A stretch of 64,000 nt of DNA from a virus, in the IMG/VR virus record IMGVR_UViG_3300009514_000001, positions 158,006 to 222,005 of that record, one strand, 5' to 3'. The notes under the pieces were generated by a model. That model saw nothing but the letters and a program-made list of their open reading frames with translations. It was not told where the DNA came from and did not search any database. Positions 1,200 to 62,398 of this stretch are shown here, one piece after another (the first letter of the stretch is position 1; each line of letters begins with the position of its first letter). A program made the position numbers and the translations under genes.

Positions 1200-4100
1200 T
1201 CAGCCTCCCGTGCCAATATCGATGTCACCGATGCTTTCCCCGGCCGCCCCCACCGCCTCGACAGACTCGCCAAGAGCCCTTGCCTGGTTGTCAAGCTGTT
1301 CCAGAGACTGGCGACCGAAGTCCGGCAGCTTGTCCCAGGTCTCCACACCTCTCTTGAATGCCTGAGAGAGCTGGTTGGCGCTGCGGTCGAGCTGCTTGCC
1401 TCTAAGGGCATTCTGGACGTGTCCGTGGCCGACGGCGTTCTGGAGCATGACGTCCTGGGCAAACTGAGTGACCCGGTCCGCCGTAGGTTCTACGACCGAC
1501 ACGAATCTTTCCGTCGAGAATGCCTCGATGAGGACGTCTGCCTGAGCCGCCCGACAGTCGCAGGTCCTGAGATCGGCGAAGATGTCGAGATCGGCCACCG
1601 TGAAGGCCGTGTTGGCCACCGAGAGTTTGAGGACACCCTCGTTGTGTCGGGCCATCCAGTTGTTGAGAGCGACGCTGTTCTGGGTCTCCGGGTTGAGCAG
1701 AAGTTCCCGCAGCTCGTCGGGGGCTCCCGGATTAGCCAGAATGGAGTCGACCAGACGCCTCTCAGCGGCTGTCCTCACGGGGTCGAACGTATCCTCACTC
1801 CCCGTTCGGTTGCCGTCCTCGTCAACGAAGCTCAGAGAGTTGGGCTGTTGCCCTCGGAGGACGTCGACAAAGTCCTCGACTGCCTGGGGGTCCGCAAACT
1901 GAAGGGGGTCAGTGAAGGCAAGCTGCTCCATCGACTCCGAGCCCTGAATTTGAAGTCCTCGCCCATACCGGTAGTTCCCGATTACCTCGTACCCACCTTC
2001 GTCGGAGACGGGGAACACGGGACTGTGTATGGGCTCTTCTTTGTTCTTTCCGGCCTTCCTCTTTCGAGCTAGCTTGAACTTAGCCTTCTTCCAGGCTGCC
2101 CGGAGGTTTGTCCGGAAGACCTTCTCCGCCGCCTTCTGAGCGCCCTTCGTCTGCCCCCCGACAACCTTGGACCAGAGGACCCTCAACTCTACGCTGGCGT
2201 CCTCGAAAAGGCGTTGCGTGAACACAGGTTGCAGAACAGCCACCAACCCTTCGAGAGAAAGCCCCATCAAGTCAGCAAGCACACCAAACTCGTCCAGAGA
2301 GGTAGATGTGGGTACAGAAAGGGACCCATAGGAGATCGTGACCGGGAAGGGAGGGGCCCTCTGAGGGTCCGCCTTAACCCATCGAGAGGTGGCCTCGGTC
2401 CAAGAGGGAGAAAACAACTCCTCAAGGGTCTCCGTACCGGCCTTGGCGACCACTCCAAACTTGGAGAAGAGAAAAGATCTATAGCTCTCGTCCAGCCCGT
2501 CGAAATGGTGTTTGTACTCATAAGTCGTGAGTTTGCGTCTAGTGAGGTCCTTAGACTCTTGGAAGCTAATGGTCTGGATTTGTTCGGTCGACATAACCTC
2601 CTCCCCGAAGGGACGAAGAATACGGAGACCATTGGACACAGGACCTAGACCCAGCTCGGCGTCGGGGAGGGTACCGTCGGGGAAAAGTTTGCTGGGAAAC
2701 ACAAACTGAGAGACCTCCCGAGGGACCTCCAAGGGGTCTAGGCCTTGTTGCTTTGGGTTCGGGTGGGCAGAGCTGAAATAACGATAGAACCCAGGCTGAG
2801 TGCCGTTGGAGAAAATTGCCTTCTTGTCGCTGAGAACCTCAAGGAGGGCGGCACTGCTGTTGGGGTCTGGGAAATCAACATTGGCTGACAGAAAGCTATC
2901 CCCGATAGACCTCACAAGCGTGATGAGGACCTGGATGTCGTCGTCGCTCTGAAGAGACCTCTGGATGATGTTCTGCTCAGTTCGGGTGAAGTCCTGGGTC
3001 AGGTCAGATATCGTCTTCTGAAGCTCGGAGACCTCACGGGTGAGGTTGGCAATCTCAGCCTCCACCGCCTCCGGGACCGTCCCATCATTGTCGAGGACCT
3101 CTTGTCGTTGTTCCTCAAGCTCCCCTATACGGAACTGCTTATCCTTGATGAGTTGGCTCTTTTGTCCCACCAGCTCCTCGACCTCCTCCAACCTTCCGCC
3201 GGTTTGACTGGTGATGGCGGCGTAGCTCGCGGAGGCTGCGAAGAGGGACTCGAAGGTGAACGTACGACGCACACGCCCGTCGCTATCAGGAAGGCGAGTT
3301 GCAGTGTTCCCGTCGAACTCGGAGGAGTCTTCACTGACCCTGACTGAGGCCGACTGAGCGTTGTCGATGAAGAAGACGAAGTTGCCGCTGCCCGAGGGCT
3401 CCTCGCTGATGATACCATAGCTCTTGGCGAGGCTGATGATGTTCTTGACCACTTGGGGATTAGAAATGTCTTCGAGGTCGGTACCCGCCAGGAAGAACAA
3501 GGGGTTGGTGTTCTCTGGGTCCAGAGCCATGACGACGTTGGGCATCCCCGACAAGGTCGGATGGCCACCAGGACTGAGGACCTCCAGGGGAGTTTGAGGA
3601 AGTGCCGTATTGGCCAGGTCAACATTGTCGACCCCAAAACTGCCAATTTTTCCAGGGATTCCAGGAGGGTAGAACTTAGCCCTCTTACCAACCAGAGAGA
3701 GGCTGGACGTACATTGACCTCCCCAGACCATGCTGTGGTTCATGCTCTGGACGTAGTAGAAGACGTCCAGAGACTCGATATAGATAGGGTATCCAGGTCT
3801 CATCTCGGGGCGCTGGGGGATGGTCAGAGAGGCCGCATGGACCCCTACGTTCATCACAGCAAGACGGTTGACAGCGGCGAAGAACATTGACCTCTCGTCA
3901 GAGAAGTAAGAGGTCTCGAAAGACCCCGGCCGCCAACCAAACTGAGCAACCAACTTGTAGTCGATGAATTGACCACGAACACCCCACTCGTTCTCCACCC
4001 CCGTACCCTTGAGGTTCTTGAACTGGGAGCCAGTCATCGTGACGTAAGTGGCCTCGGGCTCCTTCTCCGTGTGATTCAGGGAGATGATGTCGATGTCCTT

Positions 4101-30437: not shown

Positions 30438-32555
30438 TTAGTCGACCTCCTCGTACTCCTCCATGGCCTGGATGAGGAGGCCGCGGGCAACCGCGTTGAG
30501 GGGGTTCTCCGCCTGACGGATTTCGCTGATCTTGATGGGGAACCGGCGGCGGTGCTTCTTGAAGACCTTCTGGAAGAGATCCATGAACCCACCAGCCTTC
30601 GAGGTCCCTCCGCTGACGATGATGGGGATGGGGTTCGTCAGCTCAATCTGACAGTTCGCCACGAACTGCTCCGCCACCTTCTTGAGGGCGTAGGAGATAA
30701 GTTCCTCGTAGTAGAAGGACAGCGCCTCCCGGTCCCGGAACTTGGACTCCTCGCCTTCACTCGGGTCGAGGAGGTTGATCCCGGCCTCCTTGATGCGACA
30801 GATGCGAGAACGCGTCGAGTTACGGCTCTTGGCCGCCCCCGCGTCAATCCAGTCGCCACAGTTGTGGACAACCATACCCGGAGAGGAGAAGGAGTGATGT
30901 TTAGAGGCTACTCGGACATCGTAGACCCTGCCGTCGTAGGGAACTTGGTCAACCCTCTTAACGACGAAACAGGCGAAGTCCGGCTTCTGTGGGTGGAGGT
31001 TGACACCTTCGTGTGCAAGGAGAGTGTCCAGAAGGGTCTTGGATAGGTGACCGACAATACGAACGTCGTAACAAGGCTTACGACCCTCGATTCGCACCCC
31101 CTTTGAGTTGATTCCGCCCTGTCTGGGCGGTCTCTTGAGGACACTATGGCGAATTCCGAACCTGTTGAGTAGGTGATGCACCAACAACACCACATGTAGA
31201 GAGGTGTTGTGGATGGTGTGGCGCTTCTCCTCTTCCGTCGAGTCGCTATCCAGAAGACCCTCCAAAACCCCAAGTGCCATGCTGTCGGGGATATTACGCA
31301 CACTCAGAGGAAACGTCTTCTCCCCCTTCTCGTCGTAAAACCGGGCCTTCAGGTGCCGGGCGACAGGTGTGAGGTGGAGCTTTACCCTCGTAAGGTTCTC
31401 CTTCGGGTCATCAACGACCTCTACCTCACGATGAAACAGGACGGAGCACACCTGGGCATACTTGCGAACCAGGTGTTGGTCCCTGCGGTTGATTGCAAAC
31501 TGGACGAACCGCGAGTCCTCTGTCCGGGGTCCGCAAGAGCCGTCCCCCAGAAACATACCCAGGAATTTGCCTAGGTTCCTGGCAGTGGCAACGGTAATAT
31601 TCCGGCCCCCAAGGCGACCGAAGTAGTAAGGCCCAGAACACTTCTTCTCAGTCTGGATAGTCGGAACCCCGACAACGTCCCCCTCCCGAAGAGAGCCTGC
31701 GGCTACCCATTGCCAGCCGAACCGATCCCTCACGAAAACCCGGTGATCTCGGGTCATCTTGTGAGAGAACGCGGGAAGGTGCTCCAGGAACACCTCCACC
31801 AAAGAGTCCCGAGAACCGTTGTCCATCCTCTCTAGGACTTCGACAAACCTCCCCTGGGCGTCGAGAACGTAATCCCCCTCGCGTACCTCGGCCATCGGCA
31901 CAACGCCGCGACGGGTAATAACAGGAAAATCCCCCGCCAAACATCTGGAAATCGAAAATTCCAGGACCGGTCGGGTCTTGAAGCTCAGAGCGACATTCGT
32001 CATCCCCGATCCGAACGACATCGAGATACCAGTGTAGTCGTCCTTGAGGCCCTCGGAGAAGACGATGGCCATGGCCTCGTTCGAGTCCCAGGCCTCGTAG
32101 CCGCACTCGGTGATGATGCGCTCGAAGGCCTTCTTGTGGTAGATCACGTCCCTATCTGCGTCGATGGGGGCGGCGGGGACGCTGTAGTAGCAAATCTCCC
32201 CTTCCTCCTGAGGCTCGCCCAGGACGCTCCTCACCAGGATGCCGAGGATTTCGAGAGAGTCCACCTCGCTGGCCGACACAAGACCCTGGGCGAGAGGACG
32301 CCGGGCCTCCTCCCTCATGATGCCGGCAAGCTCCATGGCGTCATCGCCGACGACGATGAGGTCCTGGTCGCGCTCGACGAACGTGATCTTGCTCCGGCGG
32401 AGCATCTTCCGGTCGTCCTTGTCCAACGTGATGAACGCGTCGCGGACACGACGGTAGCTCACCTTGTCCGCCGTCTGCCTGGCCGCGACAAGATTCATGG
32501 TTCCGATGTCGAGGCCTATGCCTTTAACCACTTGAACTTGTTTATCTTTTCCCAT
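30438..32555 (-). CDS. Actin-like ATPase (ParM/Alp type) interrupted by an intein
   Basis: ATG 32555 starts a 705-residue precursor. Residues 1-204 and 566-705 form an actin-like protein of 344 residues after splicing. They show phosphate-1 motif GIGLDIGTMNLVA, phosphate-2 region GISMSFGSGMTNVALSF, then after the intein CGDWIDAGAAKSRN (the GGDWID-like segment) and the adenosine motif IPIIVSGGTSKAGGF. ParM-type filaments move plasmid or phage DNA, and phages use them to position DNA or replication sites. The intein sits between conserved strands of the ATPase core, so it must be removed for activity. The gene is followed closely by a small gene that could encode an adaptor. Confidence 0.85.
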   Translation of the reverse strand: MGKDKQVQVVKGIGLDIGTMNLVAARQTADKVSYRRVRDAFITLDKDDRKMLRRSKITFVERDQDLIVVGDDAMELAGIMREEARRPLAQGLVSASEVDSLEILGILVRSVLGEPQEEGEICYYSVPAAPIDADRDVIYHKKAFERIITECGYEAWDSNEAMAIVFSEGLKDDYTGISMSFGSGMTNVALSFKTRPVLEFSISRCLAGDFPVITRRGVVPMAEVREGDYVLDAQGRFVEVLERMDNGSRDSLVEVFLEHLPAFSHKMTRDHRVFVRDRFGWQWVAAGSLREGDVVGVPTIQTEKKCSGPYYFGRLGGRNITVATARNLGKFLGMFLGDGSCGPRTEDSRFVQFAINRRDQHLVRKYAQVCSVLFHREVEVVDDPKENLTRVKLHLTPVARHLKARFYDEKGEKTFPLSVRNIPDSMALGVLEGLLDSDSTEEEKRHTIHNTSLHVVLLVHHLLNRFGIRHSVLKRPPRQGGINSKGVRIEGRKPCYDVRIVGHLSKTLLDTLLAHEGVNLHPQKPDFACFVVKRVDQVPYDGRVYDVRVASKHHSFSSPGMVVHNCGDWIDAGAAKSRNSTRSRICRIKEAGINLLDPSEGEESKFRDREALSFYYEELISYALKKVAEQFVANCQIELTNPIPIIVSGGTSKAGGFMDLFQKVFKKHRRRFPIKISEIRQAENPLNAVARGLLIQAMEEYEEVD
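30861..31943 (-). mobile_element. Intein with LAGLIDADG endonuclease in the actin-like ATPase
   Basis: The intein spans residues 205-565 of the precursor. It begins with Cys (CLAGDFPVITRRGVVPMAEV, block A), has a block-B-type TRDHRVFV, two LAGLIDADG helices (LGKFLGMFLGDGSC and ALGVLEGLLDSDSTEE), a block-F-like YDVRVASKHHSF and ends HN followed by Cys (HN|CGDW). All residues required for canonical splicing (Cys1, block B His, His-Asn, Cys+1) are seen. Both acidic endonuclease residues are present, so it may still be mobile. Confidence 0.93.
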
Positions 32556-33316
32556 GACTCAACTCCTCAACCGAAGTAATAACGAGGTCCCGGCAGAAGT
32601 CTCGGCGGTCTCTCAAGTCACTCTCCCACAGCCTCAAAACGCCGTAACCTCGATTCCTCAGAAAAGAGTCACATGAGGCATCCAGGCGTCGTCGAATGCG
32701 TTGTCTCTCAGACAATTTGTCTGGGCTATACAAAGATGGATTGGCATGCCAAAAGTCGCCGTCCACTGTGTAATACCCGAGAGGGTGTTGCGCCTCGAGC
32801 TTCTGGTTCAATTCCTCCGAAAAAAAAAACTTGGCCATTCTTGCAGGCGAAGCCTCTCTCAACTTCTGCCGGTACTCCCTGGCCTTGTCAGGGCCGTACA
32901 CCTCTTCGTATGTTTTCCCTTTCTTCTCCTGGGTGTGCTTACGGATACCCCGAGTGATCCTACTCACATAGGAGGGGTCTTCATAGAGATGCCGCACCCG
33001 AGGGACAGGGTTTGCTTCCCCTCGTTGGGATTCTCCAAAGCCGGGATTGTCCTGGTGCCTTCGTCGGAGAGGGTTCTGATCCCCTTCGAGCCAGGGCCTC
33101 TCCTTGACGCCGAAATTGGGGTTGAGAATACCTTTTGGCCTTGGCCTTCTCAGAGTGTCCACGCTCAACCCAGGTCTTCGTCCTCAACCCATGCCTACGC
33201 AACTCCCTAGACAGAACCCCGTCACCACATCGTAGTCTTTTCCTTAGCCCCTTCATAGTGATGTCAGGATTCTCGGAGAAAATCTCCTCCAATTCCTCTT
33301 TGGGTATTTGTCTCAC
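32542..33316 (-). pseudogene. Frameshifted Vsr-like homing endonuclease gene
   Basis: A GTG start at 33316 (AGAGG site upstream) opens a frame with a helix-turn-helix (KGLRKRLRCGDGVLSRELRR). At an A-run on the minus strand (33133-33136) homology leaves this frame and continues in another: GILNPNFGVKERPWLEGDQN, a NUMOD3-like repeat, then a Vsr/EDxHD-like nuclease core (GYYTVDGDFWHANPSL, RRLDASCDSFLRNRGYGVLR, LWESDL). With AAA in place of AAAA the two halves join perfectly (KAKGILNPN). The gene is thus broken by one base, unless +1 slippage or a sequencing error is involved. It ends 14 bp inside the start of the intein-bearing ATPase gene. Confidence 0.75.
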
Positions 33317-44797: not shown

Positions 44798-45430
44798 CTA
44801 CAAAAACGACCTAGGACTCAACACGCCCCGACCGACAGCGGGGCCGAAACTCGACCGGATTCCGATGCCAAATCGAGGCTGTTGGAGTCCTCGGAGGAGC
44901 TTCGTGGTCTGAATCTTGACCTCGGTGGCGCCCTTCTCGAAGTGAGCCTCGGCCTGATTCTTCAGGCTCTGGTACTTGGAAGATTTCTCTATGTCGAGAC
45001 TGATACCGCCAATGGAATATGAGTTGTGGGCCACCACACCATTGGTCAGCACAAAGTTCTGGTCCCCCGGCACACACAGGTCATAGGTATGCTCCTGAGG
45101 CTCCAAACGCTCGACGGAGGCCACCTCCACCTCCCGAAGAGTCCCGTCAAACACCACAGCCAAAGGCATTCCAGGTTCGATGCTGGACCCCTCAACCGCA
45201 ACCAGGCAGTCCCCTTGACGCAAAAAGAGGCTGTGGTCCTCCGTGCAGACTACCGAGAGACCCCCTACCAGGGCCACACACACCATCTCTTTGTGGTCTG
45301 TTTGATGCTCCATCACATCTGACACCACAGACTCAGAGACCTCTCCCGTTTCCGGGGAAACGGACCTCACCTTCAGAGTTCCCGCCAGGAACTCCTCTCG
45401 AATAGCCCTTGCAAGGTCTTGGTCAATCAT
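44798..45430 (-). CDS. Fractured structural gene, piece 3: split-intein C-half 2 plus C-extein (210 aa)
   Basis: ATG 45430 overlaps the TGA of the endonuclease gene (ATGA) and has GGAGGAGAGG upstream. Residues 1-136 are an intein C-part: block B GGLSVVCTEDHSLFL, block F-like EPQEHTYDLCVPGDQNFVLT and the end NGVVAHN, followed by Ser137. Residues 137-210 (SYSIGGISLDIEKSSKYQSL, LLRGLQQPRFGIGIRSSFGP) are the C-terminal extein of a phage structural protein. It must be joined to the middle piece (46373-47146) whose extein ends NWVADEF. The joined sequence ADEF-SYSIGG reads as a continuous conserved motif. Confidence 0.88.
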   Translation of the reverse strand: MIDQDLARAIREEFLAGTLKVRSVSPETGEVSESVVSDVMEHQTDHKEMVCVALVGGLSVVCTEDHSLFLRQGDCLVAVEGSSIEPGMPLAVVFDGTLREVEVASVERLEPQEHTYDLCVPGDQNFVLTNGVVAHNSYSIGGISLDIEKSSKYQSLKNQAEAHFEKGATEVKIQTTKLLRGLQQPRFGIGIRSSFGPAVGRGVLSPRSFL

Positions 45431-46383
45431 CGCCTCTCCTCCACCGCTCGCCGCACCCGAGAGATACATCCCTGGAGATCATTTTTCACCGCATGTCCAG
45501 GGAGGCGGACAACCGCCCACCCTCGTCTTGTCAAGTAGGTCTTGCTTTTGTCCAAACGTTGTGTGTCTGGACGCCCATCAAAACCACACTCGACACACCC
45601 GTGCCAATAGCAACCATCGACTTCGACGGCGATCTTCAACTCCGGGTGTGCCTCATCTAGGTGGTAGTACCCCACCTCATATTCTGTTTGGAACCCGACC
45701 AGGCCGCTCTGCTCCAGCGCCCGGGTAACCTCTCGGTGGAGCCTCGTATGTTTCTTCGTGAGGTGTCTACGAGCATTCAGAGCGAGTGCGAGGGACTTCT
45801 CCCTGTTGTCCCTGTGCCACCTCTCCACCTGCCCTCGCAAAGGACCTTCTGCCCAACGCTTTCTCGTTTCCTCTCCTCTCTGAACCCTCTGTTCGGGGTC
45901 CTGATTGAGCTGGCGAAGATGAGCAGCGGCTTGTTCCTTGTACCCCGAGGCGTGTAGGAGAAGAGAGCTTTCCGAAATCCTCTCCCTCGTCTTTTCCCCC
46001 GCCGGAGTCTGGAACCTTTTCTTCAGGGTCTCTGACTGAGCTTCTCTCTGAGCAGGCGACTTTGCCTTGTTACTCTGACACAGCCCAGAAAGTACGCGAA
46101 CCTCCTGGTGGTTCTTTCGATAGTCCTCCAGAGACTTCCCGGAACATGCTCGCAAATGCCTAGTCGTCACCTGCGCTAGGAAAGCCCCACACTCCAAACA
46201 GACGACATAGTGTTCCCCCTCCACCAAGTTGCTCAGGGTAGAGGGGTCAATCTTACGTCGAAGAGGGGAGGAGGCATTCGGAAAGAAGGACAAAACACCC
46301 CGGCCCAAGAGGGTCGCCAGGGCTCTTTGATTGAACCCAAAACGCAACATTACCTGACGTTGGGAGAGACCCTTAGCGGACAT
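45427..46383 (-). CDS. Free-standing Vsr/EDxHD-type homing endonuclease between intein halves (318 aa)
   Basis: ATG 46383 lies inside the last codons of the intein N-half frame, with AGGGTGG upstream. Residues 1-40 carry a helix-turn-helix-like segment (RQVMLRFGFNQRALATLLG). Near 60-95 is a Ros-like zinc finger (YVVCLECGAFLAQVTTRHLR, ACSG, LEDYRKNH). The C-terminal 90 residues are a nuclease core (YEVGYYHLDEAHPELKIAVE, VDGCYWHGC, GWAVVRLPGHAVKND) of the Vsr-related family to which the phage enzyme I-Bth0305I belongs. It probably spreads the split intein insertion site. Confidence 0.82.
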   Translation of the reverse strand: MSAKGLSQRQVMLRFGFNQRALATLLGRGVLSFFPNASSPLRRKIDPSTLSNLVEGEHYVVCLECGAFLAQVTTRHLRACSGKSLEDYRKNHQEVRVLSGLCQSNKAKSPAQREAQSETLKKRFQTPAGEKTRERISESSLLLHASGYKEQAAAHLRQLNQDPEQRVQRGEETRKRWAEGPLRGQVERWHRDNREKSLALALNARRHLTKKHTRLHREVTRALEQSGLVGFQTEYEVGYYHLDEAHPELKIAVEVDGCYWHGCVECGFDGRPDTQRLDKSKTYLTRRGWAVVRLPGHAVKNDLQGCISRVRRAVEERR

Positions 46384-47146
46384 CGTGCACCACCCTATGC
46401 AAGACCGAAATGGGGAGATCAAACTCCCTGCCATCGGAAAGGATAACACGAACCAACGTATCCCCGGACACTGAAAACTCGTCAGCGACCCAGTTCGTCG
46501 CGAGGGCGAACATGGCGTAGACGATGGCGCCCCAGACGATGAAGGGCTTCCAGGTCGACTTCTGCTGGATGAGGATGTCGAGGTTGCACAGACCTTCCGT
46601 CTCTGGGGGGAAGGCGTTCCACCAGGCCAGGGCCATCTCCAAGTAGCAGAGCAGCTCCTCGTCGGTCCAAATCTGTCCGAAGACCCGATTGAAGGCGCCG
46701 ATTCGACCCTCATGCTCCGGGGGGCGGAAGTGGTAGTTCCGGTCGGGACTATTGCTGACGACCACGCCCGAGACTAGCAACTGGAAGTTGTGCCAACCGT
46801 CCACCGTCATATCGTACATGTATCGTCGCGAAGGGAGTTGGCGCTTATTGAGGACAGGAACTGTAGTGGAACAGCCAGCCTTCACGCCGAGCACCTCCTG
46901 TCCCACCTCCAAGCGCTCACACTCCACCTTCTCCGTGGGGGACACAAAGACCCTGTGACCTCCAGTAAGGACCATCACTCCGCCGTCAGTTTCCACTTCC
47001 CAGATAGATTCTTGAGGCACTTCGGCACGACTGACCTCTTGTACAGTACGCCACTCCGTCTCGCCCTCAGGGGAGACGGAGAGGGTGCGTAGGTGCCCTT
47101 TATGGAAAGCCTCACGAATCTTTTTCTTGGCTAGATCAGACAACAT
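46373..47146 (-). CDS. Fractured structural gene, piece 2: intein C-half 1, middle extein, intein N-half 2 (257 aa)
   Basis: ATG 47146 (GAGGAGGACC upstream) lies within the last codons of the upstream endonuclease gene. Residues 1-132 are intein C-half 1 (block B VMVLTGGHRVFV, block F MYDMTVDGWHNFQLL, end VVVSN then Ser133). Residues 133-224 are the middle extein (SPDRNYHFRPPEHEGRIGAF, GQIWTDEELLCYLEMALAWW, TNWVADEF). Residues 225-257 are intein N-half 2, starting with Ser (SVSGDTLVRVILSDGREFDL). The polypeptide thus needs splicing at both ends. The penultimate residue of C-half 1 is Ser instead of His, a known but less common variant. Confidence 0.88.
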   Translation of the reverse strand: MLSDLAKKKIREAFHKGHLRTLSVSPEGETEWRTVQEVSRAEVPQESIWEVETDGGVMVLTGGHRVFVSPTEKVECERLEVGQEVLGVKAGCSTTVPVLNKRQLPSRRYMYDMTVDGWHNFQLLVSGVVVSNSPDRNYHFRPPEHEGRIGAFNRVFGQIWTDEELLCYLEMALAWWNAFPPETEGLCNLDILIQQKSTWKPFIVWGAIVYAMFALATNWVADEFSVSGDTLVRVILSDGREFDLPISVLHRVVHDVR

Positions 47147-48035
47147 CGAACAGGTCCTCCTCTGTCCACACGAAGAACAACCACCCCCTCTTGGACGCCT
47201 CCCTATGGGCTCTATCCAACCTTCTTCGGACTTCGCTCTCGACGGGCATCTGGAGCGTCCAGGCGGCTTTTACTTCAACCAGAGCTGTCGCCCCGTCCAA
47301 ATAGGTGACAACAAAGTCCGGCAATATCCAACTACGGTCATCCAAGACGAGGCGTTTCTCGTACTCAAAGGAAACCACCTTGAAATCCGATTCCAGCTTC
47401 TCCACGGCGGCCTTCTCATAGGTGCTACGTACCCAGAACTCCTTCCTCTCACACTTCCCGGAAACTACCCTGGACCCTTTGCCCCGTATCCACTTTGCCG
47501 GGTCCTCTGCGATCCTCTTCGCCTGTTCCCGAGAACGTCGGACTCTCTCCTCCTGGCTTCTGTGGAATTCGAGGAGAGGGTCTCTATACGAGGGGTCCTT
47601 CCACAGACGACGAAATCTGTCTGAAATTCCCTGCCGTCTCTCGGGGGTAAAGGAGGCTCGGAGGCTGTCAATCTCTTCCGAGGACCTGATCCTCCCTCTC
47701 AGGCTATCAAAAACACCGTCTTGCCACATCTTTTCGAGTTGTCCGGGACGTTTCTTTCCCTTCCATTGCGCCCCAAGATGACGGCCGGCCTCGCGTCGTC
47801 GATCCATTGCTGCCTCGCACCTAACAGCCTTCGTCAACCGATGAATGCCTGCGATAGACAAGCCCGTAATTTGACTCATTTCCCCCCATGACTTACCCGA
47901 TTCATGGAGGAAGGTGACAATCCGAGACCTTTTCTCTCGAACCCCTTTGGGAGGTCTTCCCTTCTTAGAGAAAATCTCCCAAGAGAGACCCTCTTGTTCG
48001 AACAGAGAAGCCAATTCCGGATGGACACTACCCAC
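47136..48035 (-). CDS. Free-standing PD-(D/E)XK endonuclease between intein halves (299 aa)
   Basis: I choose GTG 48035, six bases after GGGAGG and overlapping the stop of the N-half gene (GTGGGTAG). The N-terminal part has a helix-turn-helix (SWGEMSQITGLSIAGIHRLT), followed by basic helices. The C-terminal part carries SILPDFVV-like and EVK residues: WILPDFVVTYLDGATALVEV then KAAW, a PD-(D/E)XK nuclease core, with an upstream YEKAAVEKL helix. It differs in family from the other free-standing endonuclease of the same gene, so the two breaks arose separately. Confidence 0.8.
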   Translation of the reverse strand: MGSVHPELASLFEQEGLSWEIFSKKGRPPKGVREKRSRIVTFLHESGKSWGEMSQITGLSIAGIHRLTKAVRCEAAMDRRREAGRHLGAQWKGKKRPGQLEKMWQDGVFDSLRGRIRSSEEIDSLRASFTPERRQGISDRFRRLWKDPSYRDPLLEFHRSQEERVRRSREQAKRIAEDPAKWIRGKGSRVVSGKCERKEFWVRSTYEKAAVEKLESDFKVVSFEYEKRLVLDDRSWILPDFVVTYLDGATALVEVKAAWTLQMPVESEVRRRLDRAHREASKRGWLFFVWTEEDLFDVV

Positions 48036-48519
48036 GAAGAACCTCCCACAGGTCTCCCATGCGAACATCCATGAGAGTCCCGTCTACATCTAGTCGTACC
48101 AACTCTTCCTCCCCGACACAGTGATCTCTGAGTAGGAGGCGGAGCTTGTTGACGCAGTCCTGTTGGGCTCCTGTCAAGGTGGCGACGCTGATTCCCTTGG
48201 AGATGACCTGGAAGTCCATGACCACTTCCTGAGACGCCTCTCCCGGGTTGAGCGTGAACGTCCACCGGATACGGTAGTCCCCCGCGACTGCGCTCGGGGG
48301 GACGAACAGGGCTGCGTAGTACTCCCCGATGACCGGGTTGACCGGCTTGCGGGGAACTCCCGGGGGGATTGGCACTTCCGTCTGTGGAGGGCCGGGGTCC
48401 AGGTAGAACAGCTCGTAGCTGATCTCGAACACATTGGTCGGACAGCCGTTGGCATCTTGGAAGAAGATACACAGGTCGCCCCGCTGGACTTCCTGACCTG
48501 GTGTGAACTGGATGGCCAT
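48028..48519 (-). CDS. Fractured structural gene, piece 1: N-extein plus intein N-half 1 (163 aa)
   Basis: ATG 48519 starts the N-terminal extein, residues 1-133: a beta-sandwich-like start (TPGQEVQRGDLCIFFQDANG, DYRIRWTFTL) and a linker DCVNKLRLLLRDH. Residues 134-163 (CVGEEELVRLDVDGTLMDVR) are a 30-residue intein N-half starting with Cys1. Splicing to piece 2 gives RDH-SPDRNYHFRPP. With piece 3 the mature protein has 299 residues. The three coding pieces and two endonuclease genes overlap end to end, so all five are translated from one message. Confidence 0.88.
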   Translation of the reverse strand: MAIQFTPGQEVQRGDLCIFFQDANGCPTNVFEISYELFYLDPGPPQTEVPIPPGVPRKPVNPVIGEYYAALFVPPSAVAGDYRIRWTFTLNPGEASQEVVMDFQVISKGISVATLTGAQQDCVNKLRLLLRDHCVGEEELVRLDVDGTLMDVRMGDLWEVLRG

Positions 48520-61011: not shown

Positions 61012-62373
61012 ACACCGTTCTCCGAAACTTATGAAAATCTAGGTACACCTTGACTCCTGTTCGGTTCCTGCTTCATCGAGGCCGCCACCAGGAGACTAAC
61101 ATCCCCCGCCGGTCTTACGTCCTCTCCACAGACTGACACCGGGGAACTCCCGGCCAACTGTTTCAAATTGATTGCGGCGTTCAGGTCTCGGCCAACACGG
61201 AGGCCACATTCGCCACACTGATACACGCGGTCCGACAAACTCAAGTCAGACTTTACTTTCCCGCATCCGGAACACGTCTTCGAACTAGGAAACCACCGGT
61301 CCGCCTCGATGACCTCAACTCCGGCCCACTCGGCCTTGTAGGCCAACTGTCGTAGGAACTCGGATAACGAGGCATCCGACAACGCTCTGGAGAGACGCCG
61401 GTTCTTCAGCATCCCAGAAACGTTGAGCGTCTCGACCACCAGGACATCAGCACTCTCTACGATCTCACTGGTCGCCTTGTGCAATGCATCCTTGCGGAGG
61501 CACGACACCCGATAGTAGAGACGAGCTACTCTGGCTCGGGCTTTCGCTCTGTTCCTGCTGCCTTTCTGTTTTCTGGCTAGTGCCTTCTGAGCCCGCCGCA
61601 AACGGCGCTGGCACCGGGCCAGGGCACGAGGGTTCTCGAATACCTGTCCGTCACTCGTTACCGCAAGAGACTTGATTCCGACATCCACCCCAACCACTTT
61701 GGTTCTCGGTCGCTGGGGCATTGTCAGAACGGTCTGCTTGACAGATAGAGAAACGAACCACCTACCGGCTCTACAAGAGACAGTGGCCGACAGGATTTTC
61801 ACGTCTTCCCTCTCGGGTCCCGGAAGATATCCAACCTCTTTCAGTCGAATCCATCCGAGCCTCGGGAGCTTGATGCTACGACCATCTTCGGAGGTCTTGA
61901 TGGACCCGGTCAGACGGAACTTGAGAGGGCTCCGATGACGGCTCTTGAATCTCGGGAACCCTTTCCTCTTCGCTCCCTTCTTACAGCGCCGGAAGAATCC
62001 TCTGAAGGCCCTATCAAGGTCTCTCAGAGCTTCCTGAGGAGCACACTTGGACACGCCATACATCCAAGGAACGCCACCTTCTTCGGGGTCGGTCCTCTTG
62101 AGCTTGTTCAGCTCCCGATGGAGTTCGATGTTGTTCGGGGACTTCCCGGTGCTCTTGTAGGTCTCTATCTTCTGTTGGAGCCCCCAGTTGTAGGCCCAAC
62201 GAGCCGCTCCCGCATGGCACCGAAGTGCCGTGCGCTGGCGGTTGTTCGGGTCCAACTCGACCCGATATGCTCGTTGGACGACGGACATGGCTACTCGTTC
62301 CTCTTTTGGATTGAGGGGACCGGTGGGCCCAGAACCCCCGGGTAGGTCCAGAGCACCTACCAGGGGGTGTTCA
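61012..62373 (-). mobile_element. Solitary TnpB element (IS200/IS605 group), ends approximate
   Basis: The element holds TnpB and no TnpA. On the minus strand TTGAT (62378-62374), the same as the insertion target used by ISDra2, is directly followed by TGAACACCCCC and a short palindrome GGTAGG...CCTACC (62341-62361), as expected at the left end. The right end must lie between the TnpB stop at 61029 and the next gene start at 61010. The omega RNA probably overlaps the last TnpB codons. The exact ends are inferred. Confidence 0.6.
61029..62288 (-). CDS. tnpB: TnpB RNA-guided nuclease
   Basis: I choose ATG 62288 (MSVVQRAYRVELDPNN), which matches the usual TnpB start; the longer frame opens at the TTG of the target site. 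The 419-residue protein has the N-terminal helical domain (HAGAARWAYNWGLQQKIETY), then the RuvC parts: D in VVGVDVGIKSLAV, E in DVLVVETLNVSGM and the final D in GRDLNAAINLKQL. The CSGCG...CGECG zinc finger lies between the last two. All catalytic residues are present, so it may cut DNA next to a TTGAT-type motif using an omega RNA made from the element's 3' end. Confidence 0.93.
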   Translation of the reverse strand: MSVVQRAYRVELDPNNRQRTALRCHAGAARWAYNWGLQQKIETYKSTGKSPNNIELHRELNKLKRTDPEEGGVPWMYGVSKCAPQEALRDLDRAFRGFFRRCKKGAKRKGFPRFKSRHRSPLKFRLTGSIKTSEDGRSIKLPRLGWIRLKEVGYLPGPEREDVKILSATVSCRAGRWFVSLSVKQTVLTMPQRPRTKVVGVDVGIKSLAVTSDGQVFENPRALARCQRRLRRAQKALARKQKGSRNRAKARARVARLYYRVSCLRKDALHKATSEIVESADVLVVETLNVSGMLKNRRLSRALSDASLSEFLRQLAYKAEWAGVEVIEADRWFPSSKTCSGCGKVKSDLSLSDRVYQCGECGLRVGRDLNAAINLKQLAGSSPVSVCGEDVRPAGDVSLLVAASMKQEPNRSQGVPRFS

Positions 62374-62398
62374 ATCAAACGAGTATCGTCTCGGGACC

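What the first reader, a model, noticed from the sequence alone, without database searches (positions are those of the whole stretch)
44798..48519. One phage structural gene fractured twice: two split inteins with two unrelated free-standing endonucleases
Five overlapping genes on one strand encode, in order, N-extein plus 30-aa intein N-half; PD-(D/E)XK endonuclease; intein C-half plus 92-aa middle extein plus 33-aa intein N-half; Vsr-like endonuclease; intein C-half plus 74-aa C-extein. The three extein parts read as one continuous protein of 299 aa (LLLRDH|SPDRNYHFRPP and NWVADEF|SYSIGGISLDIE). Single fractured genes of this kind have been described from metagenomes. A tandem double arrangement, in which the middle piece must be trans-spliced at both ends and in the right order, is the most novel thing here. 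It has built-in orthogonality, because each N-half must choose its own C-half. One intein uses Ser1 and the other Cys1, and the first C-half ends Ser-Asn rather than His-Asn.
Basis: partly seen in the sequence, partly recalled or inferred. Interest (0 to 1): 0.96.

Follow-up and report, generated by a model that had tools for sequence, protein, structure and literature searches.

The report
Phage gene in three split-intein pieces
A phage gene, probably for a virion connector protein, has been cut into three pieces by two different split inteins, each with its own DNA-cutting gene, so the phage must probably weld three separate proteins into one; five other phage contigs show the same double split, which I found described only as a laboratory construct.

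Summary
On the minus strand (44798-48519), five overlapping genes encode N-extein+IntN1, a TnsA-like endonuclease, IntC1+middle extein+IntN2, a Vsr/DUF559-like endonuclease, and IntC2+C-extein. The joined exteins give a 299-aa protein whose homologues are mostly unbroken. Among 100 distinct homologous loci, 66 have both sites empty, 14 have only site 1 occupied, 13 only site 2, and 7 both. In six of the seven, this one included, both inteins are split; three carry both endonucleases in the same five-gene order.

Splicing chemistry is written in the junctions. All 40 inteins start Cys (site 1) or Ser (site 2) and end Asn. The +1 residue is Ser/Cys/Thr at every occupied site but Asn/Asp at nearly all empty ones. 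Both halves are under purifying selection. Site-1 and site-2 inteins form two separate clades.

No product has been measured. Verdict: a natural tandem three-piece trans-splicing gene, a recurrent new variant of the known 'fractured gene' arrangement.

The parts
48121..48519 (-). N-extein (133 aa; Ig-like beta domain plus the start of the helical part)
   Evidence: ORF; contiguous with the middle extein in intact homologues
48031..48120 (-). IntN1, N-half of intein 1 (30 aa, Cys1: CVGEEELVRLDVDGTLMDVRMGDLWEVLRG)
   Evidence: homologous N-half at the same junction in 21 distinct loci
47136..48068 (-). free-standing TnsA-like PD-(D/E)XK endonuclease, 310 aa (site-1 homing endonuclease candidate)
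   Evidence: Pfam PF08722 E=1.5e-4; homologue in L001 39 bits, over the cut-off; same family at site 1 in other loci; PDF...VEVK motif
46751..47146 (-). IntC1, C-half of intein 1 (132 aa, ends VVVSN)
   Evidence: PDB profile hits to KlbA and Pho RadA inteins; AF2/Foldseek matches NrdJ-1 and other inteins
46475..46750 (-). middle extein (92 aa, SPDRNYHF...NWVADEF)
   Evidence: extein alignments; loci
46376..46474 (-). IntN2, N-half of intein 2 (33 aa, Ser1: SVSGDTLVRVILSDGREFDLPISVLHRVVHDVR)
   Evidence: homologous N-half at the same junction in 20 distinct loci
45427..46383 (-). free-standing Vsr/DUF559-like PD-(D/E)XK endonuclease, 318 aa (site-2 homing endonuclease candidate)
   Evidence: Pfam DUF559 22.1 bits, over cut-off 20.6; homologues; start codon context
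45023..45430 (-). IntC2, C-half of intein 2 (136 aa, ends VVAHN)
   Evidence: Pfam Intein_splicing 38.9 bits, over cut-off 35.8; site-2 family
44801..45022 (-). C-extein (74 aa, SYSIGGISLDIE...)
   Evidence: contiguous with the middle extein in intact homologues and in the site-1-only relative LR745208

Best explanation
One phage gene, most likely for a head-tail connector or other virion protein, has been invaded at two conserved sites by two split inteins of separate lineages, each with its own PD-(D/E)XK homing endonuclease gene lying between the intein halves. Three extein-bearing polypeptides are translated separately. IntN1 pairs with IntC1 (Cys1 thioester chemistry) and IntN2 with IntC2 (Ser1 oxyester chemistry), and two trans-splicing reactions weld N, middle and C exteins into one 299-aa protein. 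The endonucleases cut empty alleles, so that repair copies the intein, endonuclease and +1 nucleophile into the new host. Shown here: anatomy, extein continuity, intein identity, junction chemistry signature, purifying selection, recurrence, and the series of intermediates. Inferred: that splicing occurs, that pairing is selective, and that the endonucleases home.
For: Intact homologues cross both junctions. Of 100 distinct loci, 66 are empty at both sites, 14 have site 1 only, 13 site 2 only and 7 both; six are split at both (WIN, L111, L125, L128, L130, L144) and L139 is split at site 1 and cis at site 2. L125 and L130 reproduce the five-gene order with both endonuclease families. The +1 residue is Ser/Cys in 21 of 21 occupied site-1 loci against 0 of 79 empty ones (Fisher 5e-22); at site 2 it is Ser/Thr in 19 of 19 against 5 of 80 (4e-16). 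First residue Cys in 21/21 and Ser in 19/19; last residue Asn in 40/40. The NX-motif His that PMC10189870 reports for Ser1 inteins is present in all 19 site-2 inteins and in 1 of 21 Cys1 site-1 inteins (read). dN/dS is about 0.0-0.27 wherever it could be computed, for both halves. Single-ORF cis versions of the same inteins exist at both sites. IntC1 is an intein by sequence and fold. Site-1 and site-2 inteins are separate clades, 100/100.
Against: No protein product has been measured. Intein 1 lacks the usual penultimate His (Ser-Asn), though 15 of 21 site-1 inteins share this. The window's intein 2 has Glu where Ser1 inteins normally have Arg/Lys before the NX His. AF2 docks the non-cognate IntN2 on IntC1 within the middle piece, so mis-pairing is possible. 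Metagenomic assemblies, no cultured host.
Confidence: 0.88

Rival explanations
1. The pieces are three separately functioning proteins: the inteins are dead or only cleave, and the virion protein works as a non-covalent three-chain complex (a genes-in-pieces solution like phage nrdA split by mobE).
For: Fragments can work without ligation in other phage genes (nrdA, in the reference list of PMC3322345). Intein 1 lacks the penultimate His; the NX motif of the window's intein 2 is EH.
Against: The +1 nucleophile, Cys1/Ser1 and terminal Asn are kept in every occupied locus. IntN and IntC evolve under strong purifying selection, also in L111, which has no endonuclease left. Several lineages carry cis versions.
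Confidence: 0.06
2. Assembly or frameshift artefact: the locus really holds one or two ordinary cis inteins with in-frame endonuclease domains.
For: The sequence comes from a metagenomic virus record; cis versions exist in relatives (L093, L142, L120, L150, L187).
Against: Stops, starts and Shine-Dalgarno sequences are in place. The same split points recur in many independent contigs and in LR745208. L125 and L130 repeat the whole five-gene order.
Confidence: 0.02
3. Trans-splicing happens but pairing is not selective: IntC1 and IntN2 of the middle piece react with each other and make a circular middle extein, or IntN1 pairs with IntC2 and skips the middle, so several products form.
For: IntC-extein-IntN in one chain is the order used for intein-driven protein cyclisation (own knowledge). 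AF2 places IntN2 confidently on IntC1 (blocks of pLDDT 93). PMC7090010 found cross-reaction mainly among inteins split at atypical sites with a short half.
Against: The two inteins are separate clades with about 20-30% identity and opposite nucleophile classes. IntN1 (-5 to -8) and IntC2 (-4 to -16) are both acidic in the six doubly split loci, which should disfavour the skipping pair. AF2 tends to complete folds and is no test of affinity.
Confidence: 0.15

Closest known systems
'Fractured genes' with split inteins and free-standing endonucleases (Dassa et al. 2009, NAR, doi 10.1093/nar/gkp095; paper not held, cited in PMC6892783)
   Same: A conserved phage gene is broken by a split intein with an endonuclease gene between the halves; Vsr-related endonucleases are part of that description (own knowledge of the abstract).
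   Different: There one fracture per gene, in DNA synthesis and repair enzymes (own knowledge). Here two fractures in one gene, two endonuclease families, and a probable virion gene; a middle piece must be spliced at both ends.
Split PolB intein with HNH endonuclease in jumbo phage MIJ3 (PMC6892783)
   Same: Split intein plus free-standing endonuclease in a large phage.
   Different: One intein, DNA polymerase, HNH endonuclease.
[quoted passage not shown]
   Same: Short IntN (here 30 and 33 aa), long IntC; site-2 inteins share Ser1/Ser+1 and the NX His.
   Different: Different host gene; found here in pairs within one gene.
Engineered three-segment tandem protein trans-splicing (PMC12707363)
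   Same: Three polypeptides joined by two orthogonal split inteins.
   Different: Man-made; here natural and apparently evolved several times. Orthogonality is shown there, not here.

Membership tests
Class 1 inteins (HINT splicing domain) | HINT fold and sequence similarity to known inteins | tested here: met
   Pfam PF14890 over cut-off for IntC2; PDB profile hits 6e-9 and 1e-6 for IntC1; Foldseek NrdJ-1, RecA and other inteins
Class 1 inteins (HINT splicing domain) | Cys/Ser at position 1, terminal Asn, Cys/Ser/Thr at +1, block B TxxH | tested here: met
   Window: C...TGGH...N|S and S...TEDH...N|S; first and last residues invariant within each site in 40 inteins
Class 1 inteins (HINT splicing domain) | splicing activity | not testable with these tools
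   needs expression
Ser1 (cysteine-less chemistry) inteins | NX motif His preceded by Arg/Lys (PMC10189870) | tested here: inconclusive
   His in 19 of 19 site-2 inteins, [RK]H in 17; the window has EH (read)
Dassa-type fractured genes | conserved gene broken by a split intein with a free-standing endonuclease between the halves | tested here: met
   met at each of the two sites
Dassa-type fractured genes | single fracture in a DNA synthesis or repair enzyme | tested here: not met
   two fractures; the extein has no match to a replication or repair family
Homing endonuclease | nuclease family with catalytic motif kept | tested here: met
   PDF...(V/I)E(V/I)K in the TnsA-like family; conserved E...D...(V/I)E..GC..H in the Vsr-like family; Pfam
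Homing endonuclease | cuts the empty allele and spreads the insert | not testable with these tools
   indirect only: patchy occupancy, 15 and 14 changes on the extein tree, insertion at conserved sites (joint P 0.004)
Head-tail connector protein | fold or profile match to connector proteins | tested here: inconclusive
   depositor label for Tunturi_5; phrog_17327 in 5 of 33 members, best E 1.1e-4; no convincing PDB match

The most novel reading that the evidence does not exclude
The cross pairs are used: besides the full-length protein, the locus makes a circular middle extein (IntC1 with IntN2) and/or a middle-less N-C protein (IntN1 with IntC2), that is, natural alternative protein splicing of a virion protein.
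Probability: 0.06. Interest if true: 0.95.

Novelty: new variant of a known kind. Interest (0 to 1): 0.8.

Why it matters
If the pieces splice, this is a natural version of tandem three-segment protein trans-splicing, which I found in the searched literature only as an engineered scheme. The loci around it show the steps side by side in living relatives: empty gene, one split intein with endonuclease, endonuclease decayed or lost, halves joined as a cis intein, and two split inteins at once. That makes the old question of how split inteins arise and persist directly testable. Six doubly split loci, together with all 21 site-1 and 20 site-2 occupied genes, are a ready set of short-N split inteins; the doubly split ones must work together in one cell, so they are good candidates for orthogonal pairs for protein ligation.

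Tried and rejected
Single-sequence scan of viral contigs with the joined extein found nothing; an alignment was needed. Chance ORFs or an assembly artefact: rejected by recurrence. Dead inteins: disfavoured by dN/dS and the +1 statistics. Origin of one intein by recent duplication of the other within the gene: rejected, since each is nested in its own site-specific clade. One shared origin of the double state: not supported, at least 4 changes forced by well-supported branches. Association between the two occupancies: not significant (odds ratio 2.5, P=0.12), and sampling is biased. Extein function by fold: model modest (pLDDT 71, pTM 0.42) and only weak Ig-like matches. The Dassa 2009 paper is not held.

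Full report
WHAT IS THERE. The window is the last 64 kb of a 222,005-base virus record. On the minus strand, five overlapping genes lie between 48519 and 44798: N-extein with a 30-aa intein N-half; a 310-aa endonuclease; a 132-aa intein C-half, 92-aa middle extein and 33-aa second N-half; a 318-aa endonuclease (start 46383); and a 136-aa C-half with a 74-aa C-extein (start 45430). The second endonuclease's stop overlaps the C-piece start as ATGA, and the middle and C pieces have strong Shine-Dalgarno sequences. So the pieces look separately translated.

THE EXTEINS ARE ONE PROTEIN. tblastn of the joined 299 aa found Tunturiibacter phage Tunturi_5 (intact, depositor's label 'head-tail connector protein'), Bacillus phage G gp165 (a shorter 179-aa protein matching the later part of the extein, intact there) and the 485-kb uncultured phage LR745208. 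LR745208 is a natural half-way state: split at site 1 with a homologous TnsA-like endonuclease, but unbroken at site 2 (HEEFDYSIGGISL). Scans of IMG/VR with alignments and a script that located N, middle and C exteins, both C-half families and both endonuclease families gave 100 distinct loci: 66 empty at both sites, 14 with site 1 only, 13 with site 2 only, 7 with both. The searches return best hits only (80 of 84 and 80 of 248), so these numbers are not frequencies in nature.

THE DOUBLE STATE RECURS. Both sites are split in the window, L111, L125, L128, L130 and L144; L139 is split at site 1 and has a single-ORF cis intein at site 2. L125 and L130 have the same five overlapping genes with both endonuclease families. 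L128 keeps a broken TnsA-like gene and a Vsr remnant, L144 only the Vsr-like gene, and L111 neither, yet L111 is still in three pieces. On the extein tree the double label needs six changes, at least four forced by well-supported branches; site 1 occupancy changes 15 times and site 2 14 times.

THE JUNCTIONS CARRY SPLICING CHEMISTRY. At site 1 the +1 residue is Ser or Cys in 21 of 21 occupied loci and in none of 79 empty ones (Asn 73, Asp 3, Ala 2, Arg 1). At site 2 it is Ser (18) or Thr (1) in 19 of 19, against Ser in 5 of 80 empty ones (Asp 73) (Fisher 5e-22 and 4e-16, not corrected for relatedness). The first intein residue is Cys in 21/21 and Ser in 19/19, and the last is Asn in 40/40. A published signature of Ser1 inteins, a His preceded by Arg/Lys (NX motif, PMC10189870), is found as a His in all 19 site-2 inteins (the window has EH, L150 QH) and at the aligned position in only 1 of 21 Cys1 site-1 inteins (sequences, read by eye). 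Intein halves, exteins and endonucleases show dN/dS well below 1 wherever it could be computed (several synonymous distances are saturated). The insertion sites are among the most conserved parts of the extein (joint permutation P 0.004). IntC1 matches solved inteins by profile (KlbA 6e-9, Pho RadA 1e-6), and the AF2 model of the middle piece matches NrdJ-1 and many other inteins.

ENDONUCLEASES AND THE LIFE CYCLE. The site-1 gene is TnsA-like PD-(D/E)XK and the site-2 gene is DUF559/Vsr-like. Both belong to the PD-(D/E)XK superfamily (general knowledge), so 'unrelated' is too strong; they are different families, and each keeps to its site in the loci seen. One site-1 locus has an HNH gene instead (L088), two keep TnsA remnants (L104, L091), and cis mini-inteins of the same families sit at site 1 (L093, L142) and at site 2 (L120, L139, L150, L187). 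In one metagenome-binned contig the end of a Vsr-like protein is fused in frame to IntC2 and the C-extein (L206). L106 carries a third, cis intein further along the C-extein. The direction of gain and loss is not rooted by these trees.

PAIRING. Site-1 and site-2 inteins are two clades with 100/100 support and no mixing; identity between them is about 20-30%. Two cross reactions are imaginable: IntN1 with IntC2 (skips the middle) and IntC1 with IntN2 in the same chain (circularises the middle). In the six doubly split loci IntN1 (-5 to -8) and IntC2 (-4 to -16) are both acidic, which should disfavour skipping. But AF2 puts IntN2 on IntC1 with high confidence (inferred from pLDDT 69-93 over residues 221-257 and its strands; coordinates were not inspected), and PMC7090010 reports that cross-reaction, when seen, mostly involved inteins split at atypical sites with a short half. 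Orthogonality is therefore a prediction, not a result.

WHAT IS KNOWN. Single fractures with split inteins and free-standing endonucleases are known (Dassa 2009, not held, abstract recalled; MIJ3, PMC6892783). Short-N split inteins are known (PMC10189870). Three-segment tandem trans-splicing is known as engineering (PMC12707363). My searches of the held library showed no natural gene broken by two split inteins; most subscription papers are not in it, so precedence is not excluded.

Noticed in passing
window 30441-32558, - strand: A Volactin-family actin-like gene (Pfam Volactin E 9e-68) interrupted by a cis intein with a LAGLIDADG domain.
   Followed up: partly
G000 C1:69126-76367, 84001-88026, 89682-92567, 93506-96550 (outside the window; loci L114, L115): The same 222-kb virus record carries at least six further large cis inteins, three of them in one UvrD-like helicase ORF and one each in PolA-like, DnaB-like and SNF2-like ORFs (names by eye): an unusually intein-rich phage.
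   Followed up: partly
L106 about 3260-3694: A third intein site in the same extein gene (FGPF|S...SHN|SGRGVL), cis, Ser1, of the site-2 lineage, in a locus also split at site 1.
   Followed up: partly
L206 4821-5831: C-terminal part of a Vsr-like endonuclease fused in frame to IntC2 and the C-extein, in a contig binned as Altiarchaeales.
   Followed up: partly
window 61029-62378, - strand: IS605 OrfB/TnpB-like transposase gene, near tail-fibre-like genes.
   Followed up: no
L071, L072, L074, L077-L079, L081, L087, L089, L101, L107, L108: Extra copies of the extein's N-terminal domain in neighbouring genes, or fused in tandem in L107/L108.
   Followed up: no
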